Below, one piece after another: positions 1 to 8,110 of a stretch of DNA of 21,792 bases. Every line of letters starts with the position of its first letter. Positions within the stretch are counted from its first letter, which is position 1. The notes beneath the pieces are model-generated. The model ran no database searches, was not told where the DNA came from, and was given only the letters and a program-made list of their open reading frames with translations. The position numbers and the translations under genes are program-made. This DNA comes from a virus, in IMG/VR virus record IMGVR_UViG_3300022905_000072, positions 1 through 21,792 of that record. One strand, given 5' to 3'.

Positions 1-2465
1 TCCCAACTAAATATAAACCAGCCATCCTTTTCTTCCTTACCACCAATTACAGCAAATGCATCACCTACGAATGTTAATGAATTTGTTACTGCTTTGGCTA
101 AATCACCGTCTTCTGCAAAGTCTACCTCTTGTTTAATTAATTCTTGAAATGATTTGAGCCCTTGGGCAATGTTTGTTAATTCAGTACCTGCGCCCTTAAC
201 TGCATCAATACCTTTTTCAACAAGGTTCTCATCCCAGCTAAACGGACCCCAACCATCTTGAACTTCCATACCACCAATTGTAGCAAATGCTTTACTAACG
301 AATCCTAATGAATCTTTAATTGCTATGGCTAAAAATCCATCACTCTTAAAAGCCTCCTCTGTAAGTCCATACTTTTTTCTAAGATCAAGGAATCCTGCTA
401 AACCTTCAGTAATATCTTTAAGTGCTTTACCTGATCCTTTAACTGCATCAATACCTTTCTCTACATTATTTTCATCCCATTGAAATAAACCAAACATGGC
501 AGAGTCTGAAGTCTCATTAGCACCAATTGCAGCAAAAGCAGAATTTAAGAAACCTAATGTTTCGGTTATTGCAGTATTAAGATACCCACCGTCTTTAAAT
601 GCATCACCATCTAATCCGTATTTCTTTTTAAGATCTAAGAATGCACCTAAACCTTTTGTAATTTCCATAAGAGCTTTGCCGGAATCCATAACAGAATCGA
701 TACCTCTTTCGGTTGCATTAGGACTGAACGTGTTTCCGAATATTGCACCAAATAAACCACCAGGGCTTGCAGGTTCTCCACCAGCCTGAGCGAATGCTCC
801 ACTAACAGATCCTAAAGCTATTGCGAGTTCTTTTGAATCATCTTCAGTAAATCCTACGTCCTTAAATGCAGATAAGCCTTTAGACAATTCCTGTAAAGCC
901 AACCCGGCACCTGCATACATAGCGGATGCCGCAAGACCAGATCCACTCTGAATAACCCTGGTAAATAATCCACCTATCATACCAAACACGCCACTTTCAG
1001 GATTTATTCCAGAGAATGCCATTGCAACGGCTCCTAATGTAGTAGCAAGATCTTTAGAATCTTGTTCTGAAAAATCTAAATCTTTCATGGCCTGAAGACC
1101 TGGTGCTAACAAAAGTAAAGATCCACCAGCAGCAGCATAAAGAGCAGGGCCTAACAATACGGCTCCTGCCGATCCTGCAACTGCCAACCCAGCTAATGCC
1201 ATTATACCACCTACTGCCAATAGGACTCCACTTTGTATTCCAATGTCTCCTAATGACATCCCTTTAGTAGCATCAGCAAAAGGAACATAACCCATATTAA
1301 ACACGAGTAATCCAATACCATTTACTGCTAGCGACAATGCACCTTGTAAAATATTATTTACGCCAAATTTACCAACTAATGCGATGGCAGTTCCAATTCC
1401 TAGTATAGTAATACTTTGAATGAGTATATCACCAATACCAACAGTTGATGGGAAGGCTGCTGCAAATAGAGCATAACCTAATCCAAATACAACAAGACCT
1501 AATCCTATTATACTTAATGTCCCAGCTCCTCTTTTAATATTCTTTGACATCTTCTTACTTCCTAATAATGATACAGCCCCACCTATAAGTAGGATAGATA
1601 ATGTCATTCCAATTAAGACTGCAGGCTGCATAAGAACAATCATAGAAGCTAAAGCTGCTACTGCTAAACCAATACCAAATGCCAATAGTCCTTCAGCCAT
1701 CACAGTAAGAGCCCGTGACCCTCTCTTAATTCTTTTACTAAACTTTTTGCCACCTAACAAATAAAATACACCTCCCATAATGAAAAGCGTTGGTATAAGT
1801 ATTGGAAGACCAATAAGTCCTACTAGGATAAGAGGAGTTGATAATGCAAGAGCTGTTGCAAATTTCATTATAGCACCACCCATAGAGTCTAAAGCATCAA
1901 TTCCTTTTTGCACCTTCTTAACATCAAACTGTTCAAATTTTTCAAATGATTTGACTACAAAATCAAGGAATTTATCTACTGCCTTTTTTGGTACAATAGT
2001 CCAAAGTAACATAGCTTTACCTGTAAGTAAAGCACCCATTCCTAAATCTTTTAATGCTTGTGCACCACTACCTTTGATCTTTCCAGCACCTTTATCTGTT
2101 CCACTGCTTTTGGATGTAGAGGCTTTTGCAATTAATTCTAAATTCTTGGAATCTTTATTACCGAAAATTCTATCGACTGCATTTTGTCTAAGTCTGGCGA
2201 AGGCGAATGATTTACTCTGCTCAGCTTCCTGTGCTTGTACTTCTAATTGCCGCCCTAAAATAAATTCAATATTTCTTAAGCTAACTAATTGTTGCTGGGA
2301 TGTAGCTAAGATTTGTGCACTGAGCGCATCGCCACCATTACTGGAATTGCCCATCCCTTGAACAATGAATTCTTCAATTTTTTTGATGCTTTCATTAGTT
2401 TCATTTGCATAAGCCTCTATTTTTGATAGAGGGCTCATTAAGTCCTTAAGAGTTACAGCCGCCAT
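1..2465 (-). CDS. Tail tape-measure-like protein (3' end outside window)
   Basis: Open frame from ATG at 2465 with no stop down to the left edge (821 codons visible), so the C-terminus is missing. The N-terminus is polar and helical (start MAAVTLKDLMSPLSKIEAYA; glutamine-rich helix at about 55-85). A long glycine- and alanine-rich hydrophobic region follows at about 190-450, with several possible membrane segments and a degenerate repeat of about 62-64 residues anchored on KKFSKRIKRG and KKMSKNIKRG. The last 240 residues hold tandem 77-83-residue modules with GIDAVKG and DGW-FSW signatures. Length, hydrophobic core, repeats and position directly after a predicted frameshifted chaperone pair match tape-measure genes of long-tailed phages, which set tail length and act in DNA delivery. 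It is much longer than T4 gp29 (590 residues). I recognise no specific homologue, so the call rests on architecture and context. It starts 10 bases after the preceding stop. Confidence 0.62.
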   Translation of the reverse strand, partial: MAAVTLKDLMSPLSKIEAYANETNESIKKIEEFIVQGMGNSSNGGDALSAQILATSQQQLVSLRNIEFILGRQLEVQAQEAEQSKSFAFARLRQNAVDRIFGNKDSKNLELIAKASTSKSSGTDKGAGKIKGSGAQALKDLGMGALLTGKAMLLWTIVPKKAVDKFLDFVVKSFEKFEQFDVKKVQKGIDALDSMGGAIMKFATALALSTPLILVGLIGLPILIPTLFIMGGVFYLLGGKKFSKRIKRGSRALTVMAEGLLAFGIGLAVAALASMIVLMQPAVLIGMTLSILLIGGAVSLLGSKKMSKNIKRGAGTLSIIGLGLVVFGLGYALFAAAFPSTVGIGDILIQSITILGIGTAIALVGKFGVNNILQGALSLAVNGIGLLVFNMGYVPFADATKGMSLGDIGIQSGVLLAVGGIMALAGLAVAGSAGAVLLGPALYAAAGGSLLLLAPGLQAMKDLDFSEQDSKDLATTLGAVAMAFSGINPESGVFGMIGGLFTRVIQSGSGLAASAMYAGAGLALQELSKGLSAFKDVGFTEDDSKELAIALGSVSGAFAQAGGEPASPGGLFGAIFGNTFSPNATERGIDSVMDSGKALMEITKGLGAFLDLKKKYGLDGDAFKDGGYLNTAITETLGFLNSAFAAIGANETSDSAMFGLFQWDENNVEKGIDAVKGSGKALKDITEGLAGFLDLRKKYGLTEEAFKSDGFLAIAIKDSLGFVSKAFATIGGMEVQDGWGPFSWDENLVEKGIDAVKGAGTELTNIAQGLKSFQELIKQEVDFAEDGDLAKAVTNSLTFVGDAFAVIGGKEEKDGWFIFSW
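3..710 (-). repeat. Tandem protein-coding repeats in the tape-measure-like gene
   Basis: The reverse strand encodes repeated modules. The anchor Gly codon of the G-I-D motif lies at 704, 455 and 212, giving periods of 83 and 81 residues. The W codon of the W-D-E motif lies at 479, 236 and 5, giving periods of 81 and 77. Each unit reads roughly W-D-E-N, V-E-K-G-I-D, K-G-x-G, a helix ending G-L-x-x-F, a variable linker, then SLGFV-like and AFA-x-IGG segments. The DNA repeats are diverged, so this is old protein-level duplication rather than a recent DNA duplication. The array continues past the left edge. Confidence 0.75.
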
Positions 2466-2475
2466 AGTATATTTA

Positions 2476-2730
2476 TTAGAACTTAGGCATGCTTATTTTA
2501 GGCATTGATGGAGTTTTGTATGAAGACATACTTTTACTCATTTTATTTTGCATTCCGGACATATTCTTATATTGATCATCATAAGAAGACGTTTGTTTCT
2601 TTTCATCATCATTACGTTCTTTGATGATTTCATTAAACATTTCAAGAGTATACTCGTATTCATAGAAAGGTAGCAAATCCAACTCAGACGGTTGGAGATG
2701 CAACTTTTCCAATAAAAGAACTCTTATCTT
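2476..2730 (-). CDS. Frameshift extension of the tail-assembly chaperone (84 residues)
   Basis: This frame begins immediately after the stop of the 333-residue chaperone and is +1 relative to it. If a ribosome slips at CTT TAA, the next codon is AAG at 2730 and reading continues for 84 residues to the stop at 2476, giving a 417-residue fusion. The segment is a charged helix (PFYEYEYTLEMFNEIIKE) followed by an Met/Lys/Ser-rich tail ending SMPKISMPKF. The frame stays open upstream to an ATG at 2856, but that part is out of frame within the chaperone and has an unlikely composition. The first ATG downstream of the chaperone stop would lose 30 residues, so separate initiation is less attractive than frameshifting. 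Lambda G/GT is the model: a short chaperone plus a frameshifted long form encoded just before the tape-measure gene. A sequencing indel would look the same. Confidence 0.6.
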   Translation of the reverse strand, partial: KIRVLLLEKLHLQPSELDLLPFYEYEYTLEMFNEIIKERNDDEKKQTSSYDDQYKNMSGMQNKMSKSMSSYKTPSMPKISMPKF

Positions 2731-2734
2731 AAAG
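2728..2734 (-). promoter_or_regulatory. Candidate +1 ribosomal frameshift site CTT TAA G
   Basis: The last sense codon and stop of the 333-residue frame read CTT TAA followed by G. Slippage of the peptidyl-tRNA(Leu) from CTT to TTT places AAG in the A site and enters the downstream frame. This has the same logic as the CUU UGA site of bacterial release-factor-2 genes. A weak AGGA lies about 16 bases upstream, farther than the spacing used in the release-factor-2 gene, so no stimulator is evident. Confidence 0.5.
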
Positions 2735-3730
2735 AAGTTCAGAAGTGATATCCTGAATAATAAAGAGAGCCTTGACGCCGCCGGGAAAGGAAAGCGGGAC
2801 TGTGACCTCCGCATCACAACTTTCACATGGATAGACAAACTCAGGCTTGACTCCAATTTTCGCTTTTTCTACAAGTCTATAAACAATTGAATATTTACTT
2901 GCATCCCAACCTTGGAAATTGGTTATAGCAGAAAAGATTTCATTATCATTAAAACCTCTCCATTCTCTTTGTACATAAGGAAGCACAGTAAGAGATGCTT
3001 TATCCCAAGATTTATTTTCCTCTTCACGTTTTCTAATCCAATTAGTAATAGCTCTCATTACTCCGATCGTAGGTGGTGCTAATGTAATCTCTCCATGATT
3101 TTTAGTAGGAATTGTATAGCACTTATTTTGATAATCATAATATTTTTCTAATAGTTCATCAGTTTCCTGGAATTGTAGATTAGATGTTTTAAGCTCTACG
3201 GATTCCTGAGATTTACAGCTAGGAGTGGAACATCCTTTTTTACCAATTGGCATCATAAGTTTATTTTCACCTTGCTTAAACGTAAGTTCTCTAATTGATA
3301 AAATAAGGTAAATTCTATCTTCTTCCAATACGTCTCTATAAGATCCTCTCTGTGTACCGTACATTATTTTAGTACAATTAACAAGAATAGAATTTAACTT
3401 TTCATCTACATCTAAGATGTTATCCTCATCTACTGTTGAAAAATCTCTAATCTCACCAACTCTTGCGGCTCTGATATGAATTTCAAAATCTTCTCTATAG
3501 AAACGCCCACCCGATGGGAACTGTGTTAAATCTAATTTAACATGCCCAGCCAATGATTGTATTCTTTTAATTTCTGGATCATCAGGTGAAACTACACCAG
3601 AACCTCTAGTTGTGTCAACTTTACCTAGCTCTTTAATAGTACCGCTTTCATCAGTTACTACAGCAGCAGTATCCTGAATACTTTCAGCTGCTTCAAATTC
3701 CTTTTTAATATTGTCCTCGTGACTACTCAT
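2729..3730 (-). CDS. Tail-assembly chaperone / T4 gp26-gp51-like baseplate hub family
   Basis: Protein of 333 residues. The N-terminal 60 residues look disordered and acidic. The core begins with F-P-S-G-G-x-F-Y at 71-78, then I-H-I-R and V-G-E-I-R-D-F, a motif order I associate with the T4 gp26/gp51 baseplate-hub family (T4 members are about 210-250 residues). Four cysteines could form a zinc ribbon: C167 and C172, then C302 and C305 in YPCESCDAE. A bipartite layout, with the finger halves at the middle and C-terminus, fits the family. It starts two bases after the endonuclease gene stop and has no Shine-Dalgarno sequence. Its 3' end holds the proposed frameshift site, and the next gene is tape-measure-like, so the probable job is chaperoning the tape measure during tail assembly. 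The family call is by motif pattern only. Confidence 0.62.
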   Translation of the reverse strand: MSSHEDNIKKEFEAAESIQDTAAVVTDESGTIKELGKVDTTRGSGVVSPDDPEIKRIQSLAGHVKLDLTQFPSGGRFYREDFEIHIRAARVGEIRDFSTVDEDNILDVDEKLNSILVNCTKIMYGTQRGSYRDVLEEDRIYLILSIRELTFKQGENKLMMPIGKKGCSTPSCKSQESVELKTSNLQFQETDELLEKYYDYQNKCYTIPTKNHGEITLAPPTIGVMRAITNWIRKREEENKSWDKASLTVLPYVQREWRGFNDNEIFSAITNFQGWDASKYSIVYRLVEKAKIGVKPEFVYPCESCDAEVTVPLSFPGGVKALFIIQDITSELL

Positions 3731-3732
3731 AA

Positions 3733-4203
3733 TTATTTAGATTTTATTAATTGTTTTTCTGGTGATGTCTCTTTTACAATATGCTCTACTATTAATTGCC
3801 TAACATATCTTGATACGGGCATCGGTTTTGTTTTTGTTTCCATTGATTTTTGGATAATGATAGAATTTAAATTATCTTCATCTTCTGGGGTTAATAAGAC
3901 TTGTAATTTTTTTGTAAGTCTTTTCTTTTGTGGGATCATTTCTTGGACGCTTTCGTTATAACCATATTTAGGATTATCGGCTTTAAATTTTTTAATCCAA
4001 AATTCAAGTCTATCCATAATATGACCTAGTGATTCATCTTGTCCAAATTCTTCTAATGTAGTTTTAGTAAAGGATCTTAAACCAAAATCTTTTACCGCCC
4101 TCTTAATGTATTTTCCTGTACCTAAGTTGTTTGGATTATCATTAACAGAGTAGCCTACATAAATCTTCCCATCTGTTTGATTTTCTACTTTAAATATAGT
4201 CAT
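3733..4203 (-). CDS. GIY-YIG endonuclease with C-terminal ribbon-helix-helix domain
   Basis: A 156-residue protein. Residues 2-17 carry the paired strands of a GIY-YIG domain, with TIF in place of GIY and GKIYVG for YIG. A basic helix follows (KYIKRAVKDFG, R35). E67 in RLEFWIKKF sits where the metal-binding glutamate is expected, and GYN at 81-83 completes the fold. Residues about 98-145 (VLLTPEDEDNLNSI, then PVSRYVRQLIVEHI) look like a ribbon-helix-helix DNA-binding unit. The combination suggests a free-standing homing-type endonuclease comparable in kind to T4 Seg proteins. It lies between the tail tube and tail chaperone genes, behind a terminator and its own promoter-like motif. The first motif is degenerate (T-I-F), so activity is uncertain. 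Confidence 0.72.
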   Translation of the reverse strand: MTIFKVENQTDGKIYVGYSVNDNPNNLGTGKYIKRAVKDFGLRSFTKTTLEEFGQDESLGHIMDRLEFWIKKFKADNPKYGYNESVQEMIPQKKRLTKKLQVLLTPEDEDNLNSIIIQKSMETKTKPMPVSRYVRQLIVEHIVKETSPEKQLIKSK

Positions 4204-4301: not shown

Positions 4302-4865
4302 TTAAAGATTTGTAGCTCCAACATTTTCTTCAACCCAGTGATCACAACGGTAAGTCATTGTTAAATCAGCGGCATCTGGAGTTTCATAATTCAATTCATC
4401 TACGAAATCAGGTTGTCCTGTTGGGAATACATCTTTACAAGTAATCTTTCTGAAAATATCACCTGCTCTGTTGTACTGTACAATAATCATACTTCCAACA
4501 TAATCCTTTTTCAATCCCATTTCGCCGGTTAGTGGATCATAAATCAATTTGTACCAGTTACGGAATGTGTTGTAAATGTAGTTTTCATTTGCTTCATTCA
4601 GGTTTAAGCTGAAGTTGAGTGTGAGATCCAAGAATGTTTGTCCTGGCATACTTGCAAACGAACGATCAGCAAATTTATATTTCTGACCGATTGCATCTAC
4701 AGATGGATTAAGGTTATTTAATCCTCCGATAGTTTTAACCTGTTCCAAGATTAATCCTGTATCATCACCTAATGGGCTGAACACAGTTACCTCGAAAAGG
4801 TTTGGTTGGATAGGTTCATATCTCTGACTGCTGGCCCTTGATTGTGTATAATGTGGTAATGGCAT
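4302..4865 (-). CDS. 19: Tail tube protein (T4 gp19-like)
   Basis: A 187-residue protein (T4 gp19 has 163) that should polymerise as the inner tail tube. Near the N-terminus it reads Q-P-N-L-F-E-V-T-V-F, then the conserved loop region with SFASMPGQTF, followed by alternating beta strands (LDLTLNFSLN, VGSMIIVQYN). A helix FRNWYKLIYDP and an ending YETPDAADLTMTYRCDHW match the tube-protein pattern in which the last strand mediates ring contacts. It lies directly downstream of the sheath gene, the T4 order 18-19. A promoter-like GAATATATAA lies 17 bases before ATG and an intrinsic terminator follows, so it is probably also expressed as its own abundant short transcript. Confidence 0.9.
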   Translation of the reverse strand: MPLPHYTQSRASSQRYEPIQPNLFEVTVFSPLGDDTGLILEQVKTIGGLNNLNPSVDAIGQKYKFADRSFASMPGQTFLDLTLNFSLNLNEANENYIYNTFRNWYKLIYDPLTGEMGLKKDYVGSMIIVQYNRAGDIFRKITCKDVFPTGQPDFVDELNYETPDAADLTMTYRCDHWVEENVGATNL

Positions 4866-4903: not shown

Positions 4904-7900
4904 TTATTGGAAGTTACCTGAGCTTATTGCACCTGTTTTAAGGATTGTAGTTCTTTGTACGAGAACTTCCATACCTCTTACTGGCTCGATATAAGTATCA
5001 AGGATACCTACATTCTGATCTATAACTTCTGGAGTATTATTAGTTTCATCCATAACATTCTTAAAGTCAAAAACACCATCATCGTTTTGAACGGTTGATA
5101 AGAAGTTATCAGCAAGAGTTTTAATTTCCAATCTAGTTTGAGCTGTGTTAAATTCAAATAAGTAGTTTTTCAGGATTGCTTCAATACCATCTTGGATGTA
5201 AATTACAACCTCTCTAACATTAATTGAGCTTAACGCAGATTTTGTAGTTTGCTGTGCTGTTTTATTAGCAAAGATTGTTGGGCCAGTTCCACTTTGGAAT
5301 ACAATTGGATTCAATCCAAATGGTTCTAAGTATTCTCTGTCCTCTTTACCAAGATTTAATTCTAAACCTACAACTCCAGTTCCACCTACAACGCCTCTAC
5401 GAACACCTGCAACTAATGACCACGGTAAAGCATTTTCATACTTTGCAATAAAGTTATTAGAAACATACGGTGCTGGTACAACGTTTATGTTCTTTCCTAA
5501 ATCTCTTACAGTAATGAAAGGATAGTAGAATGCGCCAAAGCTTGCACCTTGTGTTGGTGAAGGTAATGAGTATCTTACCGTTGGATTTTTACTAAGATCT
5601 CCACCAGTAGAAATAAATCTAGAGGAAAGCGATCCAGTTGCATCCAAGAAGGAAGGATCTGTATTATTCTTAAAGTCTTTAGCAGAAGGTGCATTAATTA
5701 TTGCAAATGCATTCTTTCTAGTAGAACATAAGTTTGTATAAATTGCCTTAGATCCACTTTCAATACCGTTTCCGAACGTATCAACTAAATATCTGAAGTT
5801 AATTGTTTCTCTATCAGTTAATGCTTTAAACAGGTTAGTTCCATTAAGAGTACCATTTAATATAGCATTCTGTCTTTCGTTAGTTCCGTTAGGTACATGT
5901 TTTGTATTATCTAACCTAAACCCATCTAAAGTAAATATGTTTAAGTAATCAATCCATGAATCTATTGGGTAATACAATTCAACCTTTTTAATACCGCCTG
6001 CAGTGGAAATTGAAATTTCACTTTGGCAAGTAACTAATAATGCCGTTTTGCCTGCAGGAATTGTACTATATTCAGAATTTGTTAATCCGCCTTGTACAAT
6101 ATTGATTCTGGTTAATCTTGAGTGAGGTACTGAAACAGAACCTTCAAAGTGTACTAAGTAGTTACCTACAACCACATCAGCAGCATCAGGATTAGCAGCA
6201 TCAATTAATACTTGGTTAGGCTTAAGAGCAGTTTCAGTTAATGAATCAGCCAAGATATCAATAGAAAGGTTATTTGCACCTTTCAGAGTTTGAATACCTA
6301 AAATATTTGCACCGTATGCAACAGCATCAGAATTTAAGAATACACCTGTACCATCTAAAGTAAACTGGGCATGTGGAGTCAAAGTGTTAAATGCATCTTC
6401 CTGGTAAGGAGTTATCTGAACCGATGGCAAGTTATATGCCGGGTCAGATATTCCAACAGTATCAACAGCAGTTGTTGGTGTTCCTACATGAATAGATCCG
6501 TAATCTACAGCATTAAATACTAAGTAAGAAGTATATTGAATCCCACCTACTTCATATACAGCTTCATCCCCATCAGTAAGAGTACCGTTTGAGAATTGGC
6601 TATATAAGGTAGATCCGTAAGAACCTATAATTCCAGCGGTTGGGTTAGATAATGGTAATTCATCAGCAACGAATCCAAAGTCACCTTCGTTAATGTAAGT
6701 GTATGTTGCGCCAGTTGTTGGGAAATCTCCTATTGCAACACCGCCTACAGAAGAAAGTAATAATGTAACGGTGTTTCCAACTACTTGGTGAGAAGTAACA
6801 GGAACATATTTTGAAATAACAGAATCAAAAATATAAGTACCTACAACAGTTGAACTATTTGCAGTCATATTAGCAAATGCATCAAAGAATGAATCACCTG
6901 CAGTTCCTTGTATTTGAATTTGAATATCTCCACCCGAAACAGCCGTAACGGAAATTAATTCTGTACCTTGTGTAACTGTATTAGGGACAGTGGCAGCTCT
7001 TGCATAATTTACGTCGGATACAATAGCACCGCTGTAAGATAAGAAGTTTACATCATCCTGTAAAGAAGTTGCTTGAGTATATTCTAAATTATGACCAATG
7101 AGATCAAGACCACCAGCAACACCGTCAATTAAAAAGTCTCCGCTAAAGAGATCCTCATTAACTGCAACAAATAATCCAGTAGATGCAGTATCAGCATTTA
7201 CAACTTTTTCTACGAAAAGGTTATTACCAATAAGATCCACAAAATCAGGAATAAGAGAAGCAGTGTAAGTTGCAATTAGATCAACCTCAGACTCATTAAA
7301 GAATTCTGCAATCTTAGTATCAGTTGCATCAGAATCAAATACTCTCCTCTTTAAACCCTGTGTCTTATCAAAATAGGTTTGGAATGTTGGATCAGCTTCA
7401 AATCTTTCGTAAGGTGTAGCAGAACTAAAGTCTCCACCAAAATTTCCACCAATTACAAAAATATCAACTAAGAAGTCGGATACTAAACTGTCCTTATCTA
7501 AGAATCCTGGAACGTTTGCAGCGCCATACCACTCTTCAACAGTTACATTAAAACCTGCAGAATTAGCAGCAGAAGCTTTTCTTACAATAACAGAAATAGG
7601 ATTTTGTCCTAAATTCACCATGTCTAATAGATCATTAGTTGTGGTAGAACTTAATGTTGTTCTGTTTGCATTTACATTATCTAGGAATGCATCAGAATCT
7701 GGATAGAAGAATTTATCTCTATTATAAAATTTTTGGTATTCTCCCATTGCACCACCATTAGCCTGAGCCTCTGGTGTTGCAGCCGTACCAAACTTAAGGT
7801 ACTCTACTTGGTCAGCAGAATCTAAATTAAGAAGATTAAGAGCAAGAATAGGTCCTCTTTCCAATGCTGCTAAACAGCTTCTGTGGAAAAAAGAATCCTT

Positions 7901-8110
7901 TCTTTCTAAGTTTCTGTCAATATCGCCATATACTTGCTTAAAGAATGCAGTATCTGGTATAAATACAGGAGTATTGAAAGGTCCTGTCTTAGAGAAACCA
8001 ACAATTAATCTTGTCTGATTAGCAGGGATACTAACAACTTGAGACTTATCGAATTCAAATCTATAAGTTCCTGCAGCTTTAATCGAAGCGATTTTTGGAT
8101 CTAGTGCCAT
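4904..8110 (-). CDS. 18: Tail sheath protein (T4 gp18-like), oversized
   Basis: Contractile tail sheath subunit. The N-terminus has typical sheath features (TRLIVGFSKTGPFNTPVFI at about 33-51, then a F-K-Q-V-Y-G-D strand-loop). The C-terminal third carries the conserved core: RETINFRYLVDTFGNG near 770-785, ALPWSLVAGVRRG near 925, then EDREYLEPFGLNPIVF and the last helix-strand segment used for inter-subunit linkage (VREVVIYIQDGIEAIL, YIEPVRGMEVLVQRT). At 1068 residues it is about 400 longer than T4 gp18 (659). The excess lies in the middle, about 150-750, as serine/threonine/glycine-rich beta-type sequence likely to sit on the outer tail surface. It lies between terminase and tube genes as in T4, with a promoter-like motif in the leader and no Shine-Dalgarno sequence. 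Confidence 0.92.
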   Translation of the reverse strand: MALDPKIASIKAAGTYRFEFDKSQVVSIPANQTRLIVGFSKTGPFNTPVFIPDTAFFKQVYGDIDRNLERKDSFFHRSCLAALERGPILALNLLNLDSADQVEYLKFGTAATPEAQANGGAMGEYQKFYNRDKFFYPDSDAFLDNVNANRTTLSSTTTNDLLDMVNLGQNPISVIVRKASAANSAGFNVTVEEWYGAANVPGFLDKDSLVSDFLVDIFVIGGNFGGDFSSATPYERFEADPTFQTYFDKTQGLKRRVFDSDATDTKIAEFFNESEVDLIATYTASLIPDFVDLIGNNLFVEKVVNADTASTGLFVAVNEDLFSGDFLIDGVAGGLDLIGHNLEYTQATSLQDDVNFLSYSGAIVSDVNYARAATVPNTVTQGTELISVTAVSGGDIQIQIQGTAGDSFFDAFANMTANSSTVVGTYIFDSVISKYVPVTSHQVVGNTVTLLLSSVGGVAIGDFPTTGATYTYINEGDFGFVADELPLSNPTAGIIGSYGSTLYSQFSNGTLTDGDEAVYEVGGIQYTSYLVFNAVDYGSIHVGTPTTAVDTVGISDPAYNLPSVQITPYQEDAFNTLTPHAQFTLDGTGVFLNSDAVAYGANILGIQTLKGANNLSIDILADSLTETALKPNQVLIDAANPDAADVVVGNYLVHFEGSVSVPHSRLTRINIVQGGLTNSEYSTIPAGKTALLVTCQSEISISTAGGIKKVELYYPIDSWIDYLNIFTLDGFRLDNTKHVPNGTNERQNAILNGTLNGTNLFKALTDRETINFRYLVDTFGNGIESGSKAIYTNLCSTRKNAFAIINAPSAKDFKNNTDPSFLDATGSLSSRFISTGGDLSKNPTVRYSLPSPTQGASFGAFYYPFITVRDLGKNINVVPAPYVSNNFIAKYENALPWSLVAGVRRGVVGGTGVVGLELNLGKEDREYLEPFGLNPIVFQSGTGPTIFANKTAQQTTKSALSSINVREVVIYIQDGIEAILKNYLFEFNTAQTRLEIKTLADNFLSTVQNDDGVFDFKNVMDETNNTPEVIDQNVGILDTYIEPVRGMEVLVQRTTILKTGAISSGNFQ

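What the first reader, a model, noticed from the sequence alone, without database searches (positions are those of the whole stretch)
2476..3730. Predicted +1 frameshift at CTT TAA extends the tail chaperone
The 333-residue frame ends CTT TAA G and the next frame (+1) carries an 84-residue helical extension with no start codon in its first 30 residues. The slip CTT to TTT fuses them exactly. Tail chaperone pairs next to the tape-measure gene commonly use frameshifts, but usually -1 (lambda) or -2 (Mu). A +1 site of release-factor-2 type in a T4-like tail gene would be unusual, and it would tie fusion level to termination efficiency.
Basis: partly seen in the sequence, partly recalled or inferred. 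Interest (0 to 1): 0.78.

Follow-up and report, generated by a model that had tools for sequence, protein, structure and literature searches.

The report
Upstream +1 frameshift in phage tail chaperone

Summary
The 333-aa frame (3730-2729, minus strand) ends CTT TAA G, and an 84-aa frame follows in +1. Every one of the ~150 relatives and 13 distant phage records examined has the downstream frame in +1, but the codon before the stop is not conserved (CTT, TTA, CTA, ATT, GAA). The conserved site is TTT_CCC at 2788-2783, 19 codons upstream. From there to the stop both frames code: 63 of 64 representatives are open in +1, and synonymous divergence falls from 0.41 to 0.05 in one group and from 0.36 to 0.16 in the window's group. 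A T4 gp51 tail profile matches the fusion made at TTT_C (3e-6) far better than the fusion made at the stop (0.018). One lineage (L095/L096) has split the genes and re-encodes the overlap peptide behind its own ATG. A covarying hairpin with GGAGG in its loop lies 10-12 nt before TTT. The 333-aa protein belongs to the T4 gp26/gp51 tail-chaperone family. Most likely this is +1 programmed frameshifting by Phe-tRNA (UUU to UUC) at a rare CCC codon, helped by the 5' hairpin, giving a 417-aa long chaperone. It is not of release-factor-2 type. No expression data exist.

The parts
2729..3730 (-). 0-frame ORF, 333 aa: short tail assembly chaperone (TAC-N), T4 gp26/gp51 family
   Evidence: phrog_150 3.5e-5; relative L082 hits PF12322 T4_baseplate above cutoff; AF2 + Foldseek hits T4-like baseplate hub assembly proteins
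2801..2818 (-). 5' stimulator hairpin TGTGA-TGCGGAGG-TCACA, ending 12 nt before the slip codon
   Evidence: stem kept in two divergent groups with different register; TGT/CAC to TGC/CGC covariation with at least 5 changes on the tree
2806..2810 (-). GGAGG in the hairpin loop (GAG GTC codons, nearly invariant)
2783..2788 (-). Slip site TTT_CCC: P-site Phe UUU to UUC (+1), A-site CCC is the rarest codon counted
   Evidence: the only in-frame TTT_CCC in 6763 codons of the window
2729..2788 (-). Dual-coded overlap: 0-frame C-terminus and +1-frame peptide AASRLSLLFRISLLNFF
   Evidence: synonymous suppression; +1 peptide homologous across phages; re-encoded in L095
2476..2730 (-). +1-frame extension, 84 aa plus stop: TAC-C domain, like the T4 gp51 C-terminus (phrog_634)
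2479..3730 (-). Predicted 417-aa fusion (TAC-NC): codons 1-315 in 0 frame, then +1 from 2784
3..2465 (-). Downstream long ORF (at least 821 aa, runs off the window), presumed tape measure
   Evidence: position and helical, glycine-rich repeats; no confident family hit
4302..4865 (-). Tail tube protein, upstream neighbour
   Evidence: phrog_45, phrog_3629
4904..8110 (-). Tail sheath
   Evidence: PF17482 4.3e-10

Best explanation
The locus encodes a T4-family tail assembly chaperone in two forms from one gene. Most ribosomes read 333 codons and stop (TAC-N). A fraction shift +1 at codon 315: peptidyl-tRNA-Phe slips from UUU to the cognate UUC while the rare CCC codon waits in the A site, and the ribosome continues for 102 codons to make a 417-aa TAC-NC. 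A small hairpin that refolds behind the ribosome (GGAGG in its loop, base 10-12 nt upstream of UUU) pulls the mRNA 5'-ward or otherwise favours forward slipping. By analogy with lambda G/GT, TAC-N coats the tape measure and the extension recruits the tail tube. Shown by sequence evolution: the +1 frame is translated from the TTT_C position onward, the fusion is collinear with T4 gp51, and the hairpin stem is conserved with covariation. Inferred: the exact slip (UUU to UUC), the role of CCC, the hairpin as stimulator, the efficiency, and the chaperone function.
For: (1) +1 register in all homologues examined. (2) The +1 frame is open from TTT_C to the stop in 63 of 64 representatives; per-sequence chance given the 0-frame protein is about 0.04-0.95, product about 1e-28, lineages not independent. 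+1 stops occur up to 2 codons before TTT (L102, L173, L187, L190, L082, L263) but not after. (3) Synonymous divergence in the overlap is 0.046 against 0.408 upstream and 0.442 in the extension (0 of 188 windows as low); in the window's group 0.164 against 0.364 and 0.361 (0 of 192). (4) phrog_634 (T4 gp51 C-terminus): L264 fused at TTT_C E=3.1e-6 across the junction, fused at the stop 0.018; L082 0.001 against no hit. (5) L095/L096, which lost GGAGGTC and CCC, carry +1 stops and re-encode SILSMFKINLENFFKAKLALYYH behind their own ATG. (6) An HMM of six +1 products, overlap included, finds the +1 ORF of PTm1, PAU, pT24, MA9V-2, MaF61, Lak and others at E from 3e-17 to 4e-4, in most of them from within the overlap. 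(7) CCC is 4 of 5963 codons; TTT before C is avoided in the window (12 TTT:20 TTC before C against 251:67 elsewhere, p=2e-6), not seen for Tyr, Asn, Asp, Ile or most four-fold codons. (8) Hairpin: 98% and 90% of cells paired, slid controls 19-67%; TGC_CGC arose at least 5 times on the tree. (9) Literature: UUU_Ynn is prone to +1 in bacteria, 5' hairpins can stimulate +1 (PMC5009743, PMC3639245).
Against: No protein or ribosome-profiling evidence. TTT_C is not at the aligned place in MA9V (TTT CTA, 7 codons later), PTm1 (TTT CAA, earlier) or LR756504 (TAC CCC ATC), so the slip is not universal. The A-site codon varies (CCC, CCT, CAA, CGA). The hairpin overlaps codons of a Cys-x-x-Cys motif, only one pair per group shows double changes, and the tree-corrected pair test is marginal (median p 0.06). 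No 3' structure with covariation was found.
Confidence: 0.9

Rival explanations
1. One reading: +1 slip at CTT TAA, release-factor-2 type, controlled by termination.
For: CTT TAA G is present in the window and in its nearest relatives; CTT to TTT re-pairs.
Against: Most relatives have TTA TAA, where UUA to UAU re-pairs poorly; others have ATT, GAA, AAG or GAG before the stop and one has TGA. It does not explain coding constraint in the +1 frame for 19-21 codons before the stop, the gp51 match of the overlap peptide or its re-encoding in L095. No Shine-Dalgarno sequence 3 nt upstream, as prfB has.
Confidence: 0.03
2. Two proteins: the +1 ORF is translated on its own by internal or coupled initiation.
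For: ATG at extension codon 7 in L069-L081; ATG ATG in the overlap of the LR745206 group; public records annotate a separate small gene; L095 and possibly MaF61 have a usable ATG.
Against: The start codon is not conserved (TTG, TTA or CTA at position 7 in most of the window's group); constraint and +1 openness begin at TTT_C, upstream of every candidate start; +1 stops close the frame just upstream with no ATG/GTG/TTG before the conserved peptide in L102; the fusion is collinear with T4 gp51. It could coexist as a second product.
Confidence: 0.06
3. The overlap is an RNA regulatory element, not dual coding.
For: A conserved hairpin exists nearby and the overlap is almost invariant in the LR745206 group.
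Against: No covarying structure inside the overlap; L095 keeps the peptide with quite different bases; the overlap peptide is homologous to T4 gp51 and across phages.
Confidence: 0.02
4. -2 instead of +1 slippage at the same place (same frame, one extra residue), as in Mu.
For: Same resulting frame; -2 is used by Mu-like phages.
Against: UUU or CCC tRNA cannot re-pair two bases back (CCU or AAU; UUC), while UUU to UUC is a perfect +1 re-pairing; UUU_C is avoided elsewhere in the window.
Confidence: 0.03

Closest known systems
T4 gp26 and gp51 (PF12322, phrog_150, phrog_634), reported in the literature as T4's tail assembly chaperones
   Same: Same protein family; the long product matches the gp51 C-terminus across the junction.
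   Different: T4 has two separate genes. Here one gene and a +1 frameshift make both forms; only one copy was found in seven related records.
Lambda G/GT, P2 E/E' and other tail assembly chaperone frameshifts
   Same: Short and frameshift-extended chaperone encoded just before the presumed tape measure.
   Different: Those are -1 (or -2 in Mu); no detectable sequence similarity; here +1 with a 5' hairpin and no 3' structure.
HSTV-2 haloarchaeal myovirus chaperone, predicted +1 (PMC5009743)
   Same: +1 direction in a contractile-tail phage chaperone.
   Different: Archaeal host; site and homology not compared here.
Influenza A PA-X (UCC_UUU_CGU, +1) and bacterial UUU_Ynn shift sites
   Same: UUU_C slip without a stop codon; the window even has UCC_UUU_C.
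   Different: Phage mRNA on bacterial ribosomes; CCC A-site codon; an upstream hairpin, whereas PA-X has no evident stimulator.
Synthetic 5' hairpin that stimulates +1 shifting in yeast (PMC3639245); T4 gene 60 5' stem loop
   Same: Stem loop upstream of the shift site.
   Different: Synthetic construct (yeast) or bypassing (gene 60); here a natural +1 site in phages.
prfB (RF2) +1 frameshift, CTT_TGA_C
   Same: +1 direction.
   Different: No conserved stop at the slip, no Shine-Dalgarno sequence 3 nt upstream, not autoregulatory.

Membership tests
Frameshifted tail assembly chaperone (G/GT type) | Two overlapping frames between tail tube/sheath and tape measure | tested here: met
   Order sheath, tube, (endonuclease ORF), this gene, long ORF; tube and sheath identified. 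The tape measure is presumed from size and position only.
Frameshifted tail assembly chaperone (G/GT type) | Shift direction and extension conserved across relatives | tested here: met
   +1 in all homologues examined except the split lineage L095/L096.
Frameshifted tail assembly chaperone (G/GT type) | Both short and long products are made at a fixed ratio | not testable with these tools
   Needs proteomics or reporters.
T4 gp26/gp51 chaperone family | Profile match of the N-terminal protein (PF12322, phrog_150) | tested here: met
   L082 PF12322 7.8e-7, above cutoff; window phrog_150 3.5e-5 but no Pfam hit above cutoff; structure search supports it.
T4 gp26/gp51 chaperone family | gp51-type C-terminal region (phrog_634) | tested here: met
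   L264 fusion 3.1e-6; window fusion weak, 0.048.
T4 gp26/gp51 chaperone family | Two separate full genes, no frameshift (T4 itself) | tested here: not met
   One copy per record; frameshift architecture instead.
RF2 (prfB)-type +1 shift | Conserved CTT and stop codon at the slip, Shine-Dalgarno sequence 3 nt upstream | tested here: not met
   Codon before the stop varies; GGAGG lies 17 nt upstream of a different site.
UUU_C (PA-X / UUU_Ynn) +1 shift | P-site UUU followed by C, slow A-site codon, no stop needed | tested here: met
   TTT_C conserved in nearly all lineages, CCC rarest codon counted; three distant phages deviate.
UUU_C (PA-X / UUU_Ynn) +1 shift | Measured shifting at the site | not testable with these tools
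   Experiment needed.
5'-hairpin-stimulated recoding | Conserved, covarying stem upstream of the site | tested here: met
   tree-corrected pair test marginal.

The most novel reading that the evidence does not exclude
A natural, widely conserved +1 frameshift in phages related to those of Bacteroidota hosts (Lak, Tenacibaculum and Chryseobacterium phages among them) driven by a hairpin that refolds behind the ribosome and pulls the mRNA by one base at UUU_C, with a GGAGG loop that may also touch the 16S anti-Shine-Dalgarno. This would be a natural case of a 5' mRNA zipper acting as a +1 motor, and an alternative to T4's gp26/gp51 gene pair.
Probability: 0.55. Interest if true: 0.82.

Novelty: new variant of a known kind. 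Interest (0 to 1): 0.7.

Why it matters
Chaperone frameshifting was described as conserved in long-tailed phages 'except T4' (PMC5009743), and T4's chaperones are cited as gp26 and gp51 made from two genes. Here the same family uses a +1 frameshift, so the short/long pair can be reached by two genetic routes, and the split lineage L095 shows one way a frameshift can be lost. The cassette (5' hairpin, UUU_C, rare CCC) is compact, lacks a stop codon and a 3' structure, and gives a natural system for testing how mRNA refolding behind the ribosome drives +1 slipping. It also corrects annotation: the annotated records inspected here list the extension as a separate hypothetical gene with the wrong start.

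Tried and rejected
CTT TAA / RF2-type slip: rejected (stop context not conserved; +1 coding upstream). Sequencing error or pseudogene: rejected, the same arrangement is in about 150 loci from independent samples. Internal start at extension codon 7: ATG only in part of the relatives. 3' pseudoknot or stem: RNAalifold on two groups gave no covarying downstream structure. Intron or inserted element: none, the frames are contiguous. GGAGG as a classical Shine-Dalgarno stimulator: spacing of 17 nt is outside the 3 nt (prfB) and ~10 nt (dnaX) ranges, so a loop role is favoured. Structure prediction of the fused protein was not accepted by the tool, so only the 0-frame protein was modelled. Scan with MA9V-2 found no relatives; with PAU only itself. 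The paper on T4-like tail chaperones (10.1016/j.virol.2021.11.003) is not held; its content is known here only through citing papers.

Full report
What is in the sequence. On the minus strand the 333-codon ORF 3730-2729 ends GAA CTT CTT TAA G, and a +1 frame runs from AAG (2730) to the TAA at 2478-2476. The window is a 21,792-base virus record. Upstream lie a GIY-YIG-like ORF, a tail tube protein and a tail sheath; downstream lies a long ORF (at least 821 aa) that is presumably the tape measure. This is the usual place of tail assembly chaperones.

The register is conserved, the stop context is not. In 80 IMG/VR homologues the downstream frame is always in +1 and begins K-[IV]-R-V-L-L, with synonymous codon changes right after the stop (Arg as AGA, AGG or CGA), so this stretch is translated in +1. 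The last sense codon is CTT, TTA or CTA. In 13 distant phage records (LR756500, PTm1, MA9V-1 and -2, PAU, pT24, Lak-B5 and -C1, MaF61 and others) the second frame is again in +1, but the codons before the stop are TTA, ATT, TCT, GAA, AAG, TTT, AAA or GAG, and PTm1 has TGA. A slip that depends on CTT TAA cannot explain this.

The shift lies upstream. In the alignments an in-frame TTT_C (mostly TTT_CCC) 19-21 codons before the stop is conserved. +1 stops occur up to two codons before it (L102, L173, L187, L190, L082, L263), but in 63 of 64 representatives none lies between it and the 0-frame stop. Resampling synonymous codons gives a per-sequence chance of 0.04 to 0.95 for an open +1 frame; the product is about 1e-28, an overstatement because lineages are related. 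Synonymous divergence of the 0 frame drops over this stretch: 0.046 against 0.408 upstream and 0.442 in the extension for the LR745206 group, 0.164 against 0.364 and 0.361 for the window's group, with no other window as low.

The overlap peptide is a real part of a protein. The PHROG profile of the T4 gp51 C-terminus (phrog_634) matches the fusion made at TTT_C across the junction (L264 3.1e-6, L082 0.001) and is much weaker or absent when the fusion is made at the stop codon (0.018, none). An HMM of six +1 products finds the +1 ORF of other distant phages at E from 3e-17 to 4e-4, in most of them starting inside the overlap. Lineage L095/L096 is a natural experiment: it has lost GGAGGTC and CCC, has +1 stops in the overlap, and carries the peptide SILSMFKINLENFFKAKLALYYH after the stop, behind its own ATG, where its sisters encode SLFQISLKNFFKAKAVLYYH across the overlap.

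What the protein is. Relatives of the 0-frame protein hit PF12322 (T4_baseplate; L082 7.8e-7, above the cutoff) and phrog_150, to which both T4 gp26 and gp51 belong; gp51 also carries phrog_634. A profile comparison with gp51 is collinear over 185 columns, with a modest score, and the AlphaFold2 model (pLDDT 74) hits T4-like baseplate hub assembly proteins in BFVD. So this is a T4-type chaperone in which the gp26-like short form and the gp51-like long form come from one gene; a second copy was not found in seven related records, which may be fragments.

Signals. CCC is the rarest of the codons counted (4 of 5963), and TTT_CCC occurs in frame once in 6763 codons of the window. TTT before C is avoided elsewhere in the window (12 TTT to 20 TTC before C, 251 to 67 before other bases, p=2e-6), an effect absent for most other pyrimidine-ending codons, which fits a shift-prone tetranucleotide. 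Upstream, a hairpin with GGAGG in its loop (window 2818-2801) ends 10-12 nt before TTT. Its stem is kept in two divergent groups in different register; the Cys wobble base covaries with the opposite base (TGT/CAC, TGC/CGC), and TGC_CGC needs at least five changes on the tree, though the strict independent-pair test is marginal. RNAalifold gives no covarying 3' structure.

Mechanism. [quoted passage not shown] a 5' hairpin did so in a yeast construct (PMC3639245). The best reading is a Phe-tRNA slip UUU to UUC while CCC waits in the A site, favoured by the hairpin refolding at the mRNA exit. The frame and the place of the shift are well supported; the tRNA step, the hairpin's role and the efficiency are inferred.

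What is known. Chaperone frameshifts are classic (-1 in lambda, -2 in Mu) and +1 has been predicted in the haloarchaeal myovirus HSTV-2 (PMC5009743). T4-like phages are cited as having a short and a long gene instead (PMC10274946, citing a 2022 Virology paper not held here), while another paper cites it for -1 signals in T4-like phages (PMC12846349), so how far frameshifting in this family was already noted could not be checked. I found no annotation or paper describing a +1 shift or a 5' hairpin at this locus, within a limited open-access library.

Noticed in passing
window 3733-4203 (-): GIY-YIG/homing-endonuclease-like ORF between tail tube and chaperone genes (phrog_314 1.5e-8), two bases from the chaperone start.
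   Followed up: no
window, all CDS: Phe codon TTT is avoided before a C-starting codon (12:20 against 251:67, p=2e-6); Val, His and Cys show weaker effects, most other codons none.
   Followed up: partly
L095 3398-3713: Lineage in which the frameshift was lost and the C-terminal domain became a separate gene with its own ATG; no second full-length copy in the 39.7-kb and 21-kb records.
   Followed up: yes
L091 3752-4120 (LR756501): Keeps hairpin and TTT_CCC but has a linker insertion, so the conserved +1 peptide lies after the 0-frame stop.
   Followed up: partly
L093 3790 region (LR756504): No TTT_C at the aligned place; TAC CCC ATC would allow a CCC to CCA slip instead.
   Followed up: no
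L089, L090 (Lak phages): The +1 frame is open in Lak-B5 only if TAG is read as an amino acid (code 15), fitting Lak recoding.
   Followed up: partly
window 4904-8110 (-): Tail sheath of 1068 aa, unusually long; only its C-terminus matches a family.
   Followed up: no
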